A stretch of DNA of 64,000 nt from Sedimentitalea arenosa (GTDB lineage: Bacteria > Pseudomonadota > Alphaproteobacteria > Rhodobacterales > Rhodobacteraceae): positions 1-64,000 of the forward strand of contig NZ_JAELVR010000004.1 of NCBI RefSeq assembly GCF_016428585.1, read 5' to 3'. The position numbers were made by a program, and so were the translations under genes. The notes below the pieces were generated by a model, which searched no databases, was not told where the DNA came from, and worked only from the letters and a program-made list of their open reading frames with translations. Positions 3,410 through 47,310 of the stretch are shown here, piece by piece; the stretch's first letter is position 1; each line of letters opens with the position of its first letter.

Positions 3410-3486
3410 TTTGCCGTTGTTCCGCACCGGATGCGTCCGATCCGCGGAACGTCAAGTCGGGGACCTTCGGGGCCCTTCATACCATA

Positions 3487-3504
3487 GGCGGGACCTGTCC
3501 CGCC
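3487..3504 (+). promoter_or_regulatory. Stem-loop just before rplB
   Basis: GGCGGGAC and GTCCCGCC are perfect complements with a very short loop, ending 24 nt before the rplB ATG. The stem resembles the GGCGGGAG stem before rpsJ. The apart from this stem and the one at 3390, I see nothing else in 3199-3528 beyond the promoter. Confidence 0.4.
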
Positions 3505-3528
3505 GTTCAGCAAACGGAAGACAGTAAC

Positions 3529-45537: not shown

Positions 45538-47112
45538 TCAGGACACGTCCTTGTAGCTGATCTCGCGCGTGTCGCTGCCCGGCGCGGATTTCTCGCGCCG
45601 CACGATCAGCCGGTTCAGCGCGTTGACATAGGCCTTGGCGCTGGCGACCACGGTGTCTGTATCCGCCGACTGGCCGGTGACGATGCGCCCGTCCTCTTCC
45701 ATGCGCACGCTGACGGTGGCCTGTGCGTCTGTGCCTTCGGTCACCGCGTGCACCTGGTAGAGCTGCAGTTGCGCAGTGTGCGGAAACAGGGCCTTGACCG
45801 CGTTGAAGGTCGCGTCGACCGGACCGTCGCCGGTCTGGGTGGTGGAGTGTTCGACGCCGTCGATCTCCATCACCAGGTCCGCCTTCTGCGGTCCCTTGGT
45901 GCCGCACACCACCTGCAGCGACTTGATCTTGAGCCGGTCGTTTTCCGGGTCTTCACCGACGCGCATCAGCGCGATCAGATCGTCGTCATAGACTTCCTTC
46001 TTGCGGTCGGCGAGTTCTTTGAAACGCACGAACACGTCCTTGAGCTGGTTGTCGCCCAGTTCGAACCCGAGATCGGACAGCTTCGCGCGCAGCGCCGCGC
46101 GTCCGGAATGCTTGCCCATCACCAGGTTGGTTTCCGACAGGCCCACGTCCGAGGGGCGCATGATCTCGAAATTCTCGGGGTTCTTCAGCATCCCGTCCTG
46201 GTGGATGCCGCTTTCATGGGCAAAGGCGTTCTTGCCCACGATGGCCTTGTTGAACTGCACCGGGAAGCCGCTGACGGTCGCGACACGACGGCTGATGTTC
46301 ATGATCTTGGTGGAGTCGATGCCGGTGGTCCAGGGCATGATGTCGTGCCGCACCTTCAGCGCCATCACGACCTCTTCCAGCGCGGTGTTTCCGGCCCGTT
46401 CGCCGAGACCGTTGATCGTGCATTCGATCTGGCGCGCACCGCCCGCCACGGCGGCGAGGCTGTTGGCGGTCGCCATGCCCAGGTCGTTGTGGCAGTGGGT
46501 GGCGAACACCACCTCGTCGGCGCCGGGCACGGTGGCGATCAGGCGCTTGATCAGGTCGGCGCTTTCCACCGGGGCGGTATAGCCCACCGTATCGGGGATG
46601 TTGATCGTCGTGGCGCCGGCCTTGATCGCGATCTCGATCACCCGGCAGAGATAGTCCCATTCGGTCCGCGTGGCATCCATCGGCGACCATTGCACGTTGT
46701 CGCAGAGGTTGCGGGCGTGGGTCACGGTTTCGTGGATGCGGTCGGCCATCTCGTCCTGGGTCAGGTTTGGAATGGCGCGATGCAGGGGCGAGGTGCCGAT
46801 GAAGGTGTGAATGCGCGGCTGACGCGCATGTTTCACCGCGTCCCAGCAGCGGTCGATATCGGCGATATTGGCGCGGGCGAGGCCGCAGATGACCGAATTC
46901 CTCGCGTTGGCCGCGATGTCAGACACGGCCTGGAAATCACCCTCGGAGGCGATCGGGAAGCCAGCCTCGATGATGTCCACGCCCATGTCGTCGAGCAGCC
47001 CTGCGATTTCGAGCTTCTCGTCATGGGTCATCGTGGCGCCGGGGCTCTGTTCGCCGTCGCGCAGGGTCGTGTCGAAGATCAGGACGCGGTCCTTGTCTGC
47101 AATCTGTGTCAT
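45538..47112 (-). CDS. leuA: 2-isopropylmalate synthase
   Basis: This 524-residue enzyme condenses acetyl-CoA and 2-ketoisovalerate, the first step of leucine synthesis. The TIM barrel starts RVLIFDTTLRDGEQSPGATM and has VVFATHCHNDLGMATANSLA with the metal His pair. The C-terminal regulatory domain (from about 390) for leucine feedback is complete. ATG 47112 (MTQIADKDRV) was preferred over 47160, which would start inside the leader region. An upstream leader peptide with five Leu codons suggests attenuation. Confidence 0.97.
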   Translation of the reverse strand: MTQIADKDRVLIFDTTLRDGEQSPGATMTHDEKLEIAGLLDDMGVDIIEAGFPIASEGDFQAVSDIAANARNSVICGLARANIADIDRCWDAVKHARQPRIHTFIGTSPLHRAIPNLTQDEMADRIHETVTHARNLCDNVQWSPMDATRTEWDYLCRVIEIAIKAGATTINIPDTVGYTAPVESADLIKRLIATVPGADEVVFATHCHNDLGMATANSLAAVAGGARQIECTINGLGERAGNTALEEVVMALKVRHDIMPWTTGIDSTKIMNISRRVATVSGFPVQFNKAIVGKNAFAHESGIHQDGMLKNPENFEIMRPSDVGLSETNLVMGKHSGRAALRAKLSDLGFELGDNQLKDVFVRFKELADRKKEVYDDDLIALMRVGEDPENDRLKIKSLQVVCGTKGPQKADLVMEIDGVEHSTTQTGDGPVDATFNAVKALFPHTAQLQLYQVHAVTEGTDAQATVSVRMEEDGRIVTGQSADTDTVVASAKAYVNALNRLIVRREKSAPGSDTREISYKDVS

Positions 47113-47160
47113 GTCGGAGTCTTTCGTTTCTGTCCTATAGCCATGGCGCGCGGGCTGCAT

Positions 47161-47197
47161 CCTCTGAGCGGGCGCGCCTGAATGGCACGCTCAGAGG
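47161..47197 (-). promoter_or_regulatory. Stem-loop of the leuA leader (attenuator candidate)
   Basis: On the minus strand CCTCTGAGCG (ending the leader peptide gene) and CGCTCAGAGG are perfect 10-bp complements with a 17-nt loop. The loop holds GGCGCGC, which can instead pair with GCGCGCC downstream (47145-47151). The two pairings exclude each other, as in attenuators. No U-tract follows. Confidence 0.6.
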
Positions 47198-47274
47198 CGC
47201 ATTAGGAACAGCAAGCCGCACGCGGAACATCCGCAGAGCGCGGACGAAACGGCGATATGGGCGGCGTTGGTCAT
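47191..47274 (-). CDS. leuA leader peptide
   Basis: This 27-codon gene is 78 nt upstream of leuA. It encodes MTNAAHIAVSSALCGCS followed by ACGLLFLMRL. Its last seven codons hold four Leu (TTG, CTG, CTA, CTC), including rare CTA, right where the stem-loop starts, and one more Leu lies at codon 13. It has no ribosome binding site, and a TATAAC lies 8 nt before the ATG, so the transcript may be leaderless. CxCxxC within it is unexplained. Confidence 0.6.
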   Translation of the reverse strand: MTNAAHIAVSSALCGCSACGLLFLMRL

Positions 47275-47282
47275 GGGGACAG

Positions 47283-47310
47283 GTTATATCGGCCATGGCA
47301 CAAATGGGAA
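47283..47310 (-). promoter_or_regulatory. Candidate leuA promoter
   Basis: On the minus strand TTCCCA (47305-47310) and TATAAC (47283-47288) are 16 nt apart. Transcription would begin at or very near the leader peptide ATG (47274). The -35 is weak. Confidence 0.45.

What the first reader, a model, noticed from the sequence alone, without database searches (positions are those of the whole stretch)
47145..47310. Leucine leader peptide and competing stems before leuA
A 27-codon gene ends LLFLMRL, with rare CTA among the Leu codons. Its end is also the first arm of a perfect 10-bp stem, and a second pairing (GGCGCGC with GCGCGCC) excludes that stem. This is the layout of translation-controlled attenuation. 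The start ATG lies 8 nt after a TATAAC, so the RNA may be leaderless. A CxCxxC in the peptide is not explained by leucine sensing and could mean a second signal.
Basis: partly seen in the sequence, partly recalled or inferred. Interest (0 to 1): 0.6.

Follow-up and report, generated by a model that had tools for sequence, protein, structure and literature searches.

The report
Leucine leader switch upstream of leuA
In front of the leucine-synthesis gene leuA lies a tiny gene whose leucine codons can pair with the region where ribosomes load onto leuA, so a ribosome waiting for leucine should switch leuA on; the arrangement is conserved in the window's bacterial family, recurs across its class, matches a known element of Actinobacteria, and is missing from the RNA family catalogue.

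Summary
In detail: on the minus strand a 27-codon ORF (47274-47191) precedes leuA (47112-45538), and its last codons start a perfect 10-bp stem. A leader of this kind precedes leuA in about 148 of 151 genera of the family and in much of Alphaproteobacteria. The -10 box lies 7-8 nt before the leader ATG in most genera, so a leaderless transcript is likely. There is no U-tract, so this is not intrinsic transcription attenuation; the best reading is translational attenuation in which the leucine codons act as an anti-Shine-Dalgarno strand. CxCxxC occurs in the window species only (1 of 147), so the second-signal idea fails. The layout is that of the LEU element of Actinobacteria. It is absent from Rfam 15, and I found no description of it in Alphaproteobacteria in the papers available. 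Verdict: real, a new variant of a known kind; leucine response and translational output are inferred, not measured.

The parts
47305..47310 (-). -35-like TTCCCA, 16 nt before the -10; family consensus here is TTTTC/TTTCC
   Evidence: Sequence; conserved T-rich block at -36..-28 from the leader ATG in 144 genera. Promoter use not measured.
47283..47288 (-). -10 box TATAAC, 8 nt before the leader ATG; predicted transcript start about 47276-47274 (leaderless)
   Evidence: Gap from -10 to ATG is 7 or 8 nt in 104 and 6-10 nt in 139 of 147 genera.
47191..47274 (-). Leader peptide ORF, 27 codons, MTNAAHIAVSSALCGCSACGLLFLMRL*
   Evidence: homologous ORF in 147 genera; Leu at stop-4 in 147/147, stop-6 in 96%, stop-1 in 97%.
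47254..47259 (-). CATATC (His-Ile, codons 6-7), conserved, function unknown
   Evidence: About 0.7-1.4 bits per base against <0.8, mostly <0.5, in neighbouring codons.
47203..47211 (-). P3 5' strand: leucine-codon stretch CTGT(T)CCTA
   Evidence: Pairs with 47137-47130 in the minimum-energy fold; own-versus-swapped test z 18.5; covariation at third codon positions.
47188..47197 (-). P1 5' arm CCTCTGAGCG, contains the leader stop codon TGA (47193-47191)
   Evidence: 100% paired in 59 genera; six pairs with compensatory changes class-wide.
47184..47187 (-). P1a 5' strand TGCC, inner extension of P1 that competes with P2
   Evidence: 99% paired, little variation; one compensatory case in L099.
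47172..47178 (-). P2 5' strand GGCGCGC (its GGCG, 47178-47175, is also the P1a partner)
   Evidence: Covaries with 47151-47145: CG to UA in six genera, CG to AU in nine; swap test z 8.2.
47161..47170 (-). P1 3' arm CGCTCAGAGG
47145..47151 (-). P2 3' strand GCGCGCC
47130..47137 (-). P3 3' strand TAGGACAG, just upstream of the leuA Shine-Dalgarno region
   Evidence: In other genera this strand lies 4-9 nt (is the SD) or 14-23 nt from the start codon.
47121..47126 (-). Probable leuA Shine-Dalgarno CGAAAG/GAAAG
   Evidence: Sequence; position 8 nt before ATG. Inferred.
45538..47112 (-). leuA, 2-isopropylmalate synthase, the regulated gene
   Evidence: single full-length orthologue; ATG at 47112-47110.

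Best explanation
A leucine-responsive, ribosome-controlled translational attenuator of leuA. Transcription starts at or next to the AUG of the leader ORF (inferred from the -10 position). A ribosome translates the 27-codon leader. When leucyl-tRNA is plentiful it runs to the UGA and leaves; the RNA then closes: the leucine codons pair with TAGGACAG beside the leuA ribosome-binding site (P3), around a P1 hairpin that can be extended (P1a) or knotted (P2). leuA is then poorly translated. When leucyl-tRNA is short the ribosome waits on the leucine codons, covers the P3 5' strand and, at the invariant Leu codon four before the stop, also the P1 5' arm. P3 cannot form, the leuA ribosome-binding site is open, and LeuA is made. 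The leucine codons thus do two jobs: they sense leucine and act as an anti-Shine-Dalgarno strand. Shown here: ORF, helices, conservation, covariation, absence of a U-tract, and the calculated effect of masking the leucine codons. Inferred: leaderless start, stalling, direction of the response, translational output.
For: Leader core in about 148 of 151 family leuA regions, in 147 of 150 order genomes with model R1, and class-wide: 13 of 13 extra hits lie before leuA with a Leu-rich peptide, 39 of 66 class-wide leuA regions by pattern alone. P3: own strands pair better than strands swapped between genera, 17.45 against 13.96, z 18.5, control z 1.3; compensatory changes at the third bases of leucine codons, e.g. 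UA:25/AU:21 and CG/AU/GC/UA/UG. P2 and P1 covary too. Stop-4 codon is Leu in 147/147, CTA or CTT in 146. No T-run over 4 between P1 and leuA in any of 146. Masking the leucine codons lowers the energy needed to open the leuA start region from 7.56 to 3.45 kcal/mol on average in 136 genera, and from 4.24 to 1.82 in the window; swapping the strands between genera gives 5.5-6.0. Once per genome, only before leuA.
Against: No expression, stalling or transcript-start data were available. P3 in the window itself is 8 bp with a bulge and its 3' strand ends 17 nt before the ATG, upstream of the likely SD, so blocking would be by sterics rather than direct SD pairing. In Streptomyces, codon changes in the analogous leuA leader did not act as classical attenuation predicts, according to PMC1262725. 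Class-wide evidence for P3 outside the family is weak (z 2.2). The near-invariance of P1 in the family is more than pairing alone explains.
Confidence: 0.72

Rival explanations
1. Same leader and sensor, but the output is Rho-dependent transcription termination (or RNA decay) in the untranslated stretch between leader and leuA, with SD masking secondary.
For: No U-tract, and an untranslated stretch of about 40-70 nt after P1 that would be exposed when leuA is not translated. Seliverstov et al. raise Rho for terminator-less cys leaders (PMC1262725).
Against: P3 covaries with a strand placed at the ribosome-binding site rather than with a Rho site, and in many genera that strand is the SD itself. 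Rho sites were not tested.
Confidence: 0.17
2. The folded element (P1/P2 pseudoknot plus P3) is bound by a protein or a small molecule, and translation of the leader is incidental. This was proposed for the actinobacterial LEU element.
For: P1 in the family is nearly invariant in sequence (6 of 10 pairs never vary). Seliverstov et al. argued for protein binding in Actinobacteria.
Against: The leader ORF, its start position, its Leu codons and its stop are all conserved; variation in the P3 strand sits at third codon positions, as expected if it is translated. Class-wide, P1 varies freely with compensation.
Confidence: 0.07
3. Classical transcription attenuation with an intrinsic terminator, as in the enterobacterial leu operon.
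For: Leader peptide with control codons and alternative helices before leuA.
Against: Longest T-run between P1 and the next start codon is 4 or less in all 146 genera, TTTT in 10 only.
Confidence: 0.02
4. Second signal through cysteines (CxCxxC): the leader also senses cysteine or metal/redox state.
For: Three Cys codons in the window peptide. Rhodobacterales do have a separate Cys-codon leader before cysS (uORFC-8-2, PMC8632094).
Against: CxC or CxxC in 1 of 147 leaders, the window's own; 84 leaders have no Cys. Congeners L006-L009 have none or one.
Confidence: 0.01

Closest known systems
LEU element upstream of leuA in Actinobacteria (Seliverstov et al. 2005, PMC1262725)
   [quoted passage not shown] leaderless in S. 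lividans (PMC8079986). I re-found it in 102 actinobacterial loci by P1/P2/P3 search. The letters GGGCTGCTTCTCCTTAGCTGCC occur in both L085 and Streptomyces leaders.
   Different: Different phylum and different P1/P2 sequences. The stop codon lies in the P1 5' arm here and in the P1 loop in Actinobacteria. P3 contacts the SD itself in Actinobacteria, often the stretch just upstream of it here. The enzyme is type-1 LeuA here and yeast-type LeuA there.
Enterobacterial leu operon leader (leuL; Rfam Leucine operon leader; from my own knowledge)
   Same: Short leader peptide with leucine control codons before leuA; ribosome position sets RNA folding.
   Different: Intrinsic terminator there, none here; no Rfam match here.
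trpL / rnTrpL of Sinorhizobium meliloti (PMC7298713, PMC10117765)
   Same: Alphaproteobacterial leader peptide translated from a leaderless transcript.
   Different: Tryptophan sensor with transcription attenuation; no pseudoknot or SD-pairing control codons.
uORFC-8-2 motif before cysS in Rhodobacterales (PMC8632094)
   Same: Ribosome-mediated leader in the same order, found by comparison.
   Different: Cys codons, aminoacyl-tRNA synthetase gene, intrinsic terminator.

Membership tests
LEU element (Actinobacteria, leuA) | Lies upstream of leuA | tested here: met
LEU element (Actinobacteria, leuA) | Leader peptide with run of leucine codons | tested here: met
   in the window the run is broken, LLFLMRL
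LEU element (Actinobacteria, leuA) | Base stem: leucine codons pair with the leuA Shine-Dalgarno region | tested here: met
   strand is the SD or lies just upstream of it
LEU element (Actinobacteria, leuA) | Two helices that can form a pseudoknot inside the base stem | tested here: met
   P1 and P2 share no bases, cross, and both covary. That they form at the same time was not tested
[quoted passage not shown]
   P1+P1a+P3 is the minimum-energy fold; P1a 99% paired
LEU element (Actinobacteria, leuA) | Common descent with the actinobacterial element | tested here: inconclusive
   R1 finds L220, L262 and L253 elements as top matches but at E 0.012-0.29, and those loci were chosen by a shared string; convergence not excluded
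Enterobacterial-type leu transcription attenuator | Intrinsic terminator with U-tract before leuA | tested here: not met
Any Rfam 15 family | Match at gathering score | tested here: not met
Leaderless leader-peptide mRNA | Transcript begins at or within a few nt of the leader AUG | tested here: inconclusive
   -10 spacing conserved in 147 genera; no transcript ends mapped
Leucine-responsive translational attenuator | Leucine limitation raises leuA translation through the leader | not testable with these tools
   Needs reporter assays

The most novel reading that the evidence does not exclude
The leuA leaders of Alphaproteobacteria and the LEU elements of Actinobacteria are one ancient (or transferred) RNA regulator that spans two phyla and stays with leucine synthesis even when the LeuA enzyme type changes, with leucine codons acting as anti-Shine-Dalgarno.
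Probability: 0.3. Interest if true: 0.65.

Novelty: new variant of a known kind. Interest (0 to 1): 0.5.

Why it matters
It adds an unlisted, class-wide RNA regulator of a core pathway, and it gives a simple test of how LEU-type elements work, unresolved since 2005. Because CUN codons naturally resemble an anti-Shine-Dalgarno sequence, leucine is an amino acid whose control codons can themselves hide a ribosome-binding site; that would explain why the same layout appears in two phyla without any terminator. The compensatory changes at silent third positions of leucine codons show that codon choice in a leader can be set by RNA pairing, not only by codon rarity.

Tried and rejected
Intrinsic terminator: no U-tract. 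Cysteine signal: CxCxxC unique to the window. Folding energy as evidence: z -0.7 to -1.4, not informative. Known Rfam family: none. Other copies in the genome: none. P3 across the whole class: only suggestive (z 2.2). R1 as a test of homology with Actinobacteria: weak and biased by how the loci were picked. Three weak class hits were checked: L418 is real and precedes a type-2 LeuA; L420 and L421 are chance. Older papers that might already describe alphaproteobacterial leuA leaders (Vitreschak 2004; a 2010 Molecular Biology paper on attenuation cited in PMC4833913) are not held in the library and were not read.

Full report
What is there. leuA runs 47112-45538 on the minus strand. Upstream on the same strand lies an ORF at 47274-47191, MTNAAHIAVSSALCGCSACGLLFLMRL, with TATAAC 8 nt before its ATG. 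Its last codons and stop form the 5' arm of a perfect 10-bp stem, P1 (47197-47188 with 47170-47161). GGCGCGC in the loop of P1 (47178-47172) is complementary to GCGCGCC downstream (47151-47145), P2. P1 and P2 use different bases, so they are compatible as a pseudoknot. P2 excludes only P1a, the inner TGCC:GGCG extension of P1.

Conservation. leuA was located in one genome per genus across the family and 151 upstream regions were read. 149 matched the core within three mismatches; one of these (L041) is spurious, leaving about 148. A covariance model (R1, from alignment A1) matched 147 of 150 genomes of an order sample, all in the same family; the three without a match belong to one genus, g24. 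In 385 genomes of the class R1 gave 13 further weak matches in other families, and all 13 lie directly before leuA with a leucine-rich peptide ending LLLxRP or similar. In 66 leuA upstream regions sampled across the class, 39 fit a simple pattern, with further ones visible by eye; the consensus there is CTTCGACTTAxxxGCCCCTGAGCG...CGTTCAGGGG. A class model (R2) at higher sensitivity gave 17 of 39 genomes at E 0.05, two of which are chance. One of the true ones, L418, lies before a yeast/actinobacterial-type LeuA.

The helices are real. P3: strands from the same genome pair better than strands swapped between genera (17.45 against 13.96, z 18.5; a control region gives z 1.3), P2 z 8.2, P1 z 7.2. 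On the MAFFT alignment, made without structure, P3 has compensatory changes at the third positions of leucine codons (CG/AU/GC/UA/UG at one pair; UA 25 against AU 21 at another) and P2 at three or more pairs; whole-structure covariation 0.132 against 0.077 shuffled and 0.045 or less when slid. P1 hardly varies in the family, but class-wide six of its ten pairs show compensatory changes, including pairs in the stop codon (UGA, UAG or UAA each with the matching partner). These sets are related by descent, so the z-values are not probabilities. Folding energy alone is uninformative at this G+C content.

The leader peptide. In 147 genera the codon four before the stop is always Leu, and is CTA (79) or CTT (67), once CTG, although CTG and CTC make up 79% and CTA 1.1% of leucine codons in the window's long ORFs. 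CTA and CTT are what P3 needs (TAGG or AAGG opposite), so rarity is not the only explanation. The -10 box ends 7 or 8 nt before the ATG in 104 of 147 genera, which argues for a leaderless leader transcript, as is known for trpL of S. meliloti (PMC7298713, PMC10117765). The middle of the peptide is not conserved, and CxCxxC is unique to the window. A conserved CATATC at codons 6-7 is unexplained.

Mechanism. No U-tract follows the helices in any of 146 genera, so intrinsic termination is out. The P3 3' strand mostly lies 4-9 nt or 14-23 nt before the start codon, that is, it is the Shine-Dalgarno sequence or sits next to it inside the ribosome's loading site. Masking the leucine codons and the stop, as a stalled ribosome would, lowers the calculated cost of opening the leuA start region from 7.56 to 3.45 kcal/mol on average, and swapping the leucine-codon strand between genera gives 5.5-6.0. 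I therefore propose leucine-controlled translational attenuation, with leucine codons as the anti-Shine-Dalgarno strand. Stalling, leucine response and the level of control are inferred; a Rho-dependent component is the main rival.

Relation to known systems. Seliverstov et al. (PMC1262725) described the LEU element of Actinobacteria: leader peptide with a leucine run, pseudoknot, base stem of leucine codons with the leuA SD, and an alternative hairpin. S. lividans LeuL1, MRFGLLLLSCRGEGL, is leaderless and has no terminator (PMC8079986). A genome scan with a string guessed from that peptide found many such elements in Actinobacteria, with the P1 arms, a loop-to-downstream pairing and a Leu-codon pairing in most of 102 of 114 loci analysed. 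The alphaproteobacterial leader meets every structural feature tested. Common descent is not shown: the shared string CTTCTCCTTAGCTGCC is what leucine codons plus an SD complement would largely give, and R1 matches Actinobacteria only weakly. Neither element is in Rfam 15, and the library searched gave no description of the alphaproteobacterial one; two older papers that might mention it are not held.

Verdict. A real, conserved regulatory leader: a new variant of a known kind.

Noticed in passing
window 47254-47259 (-) and family leaders: Conserved CATATC at codons 6-7 of the leader ORF (+16..+21); in L092 the letters persist in a shifted frame, so it may be a nucleotide signal near the transcript start.
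   Followed up: partly
L028, L042, L052, L067, L096, L101, L111-L113, L124, L144, L157: A small cupin gene sits between the leader and leuA in about a dozen genera; P3 then faces the cupin gene's ribosome-binding site, so that gene would be under leucine control too.
   Followed up: no
L418 (genome G409): The alphaproteobacterial leader stands before a yeast/actinobacterial-type LeuA, so the leader is kept although the enzyme type differs.
   Followed up: partly
genomes G027, G308, G374 and G324, G330, G357 (genus g24): One genus of the family has lost the element or keeps only a weak match.
   Followed up: no
window 3459-3527 (+): Rfam L2-Alphaproteobacteria ribosomal protein leader, 68 bits.
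   Followed up: no
L214, L220, L230, L253: The actinobacterial LEU element, published in 2005, has no match in Rfam 15 at gathering score.
   Followed up: partly
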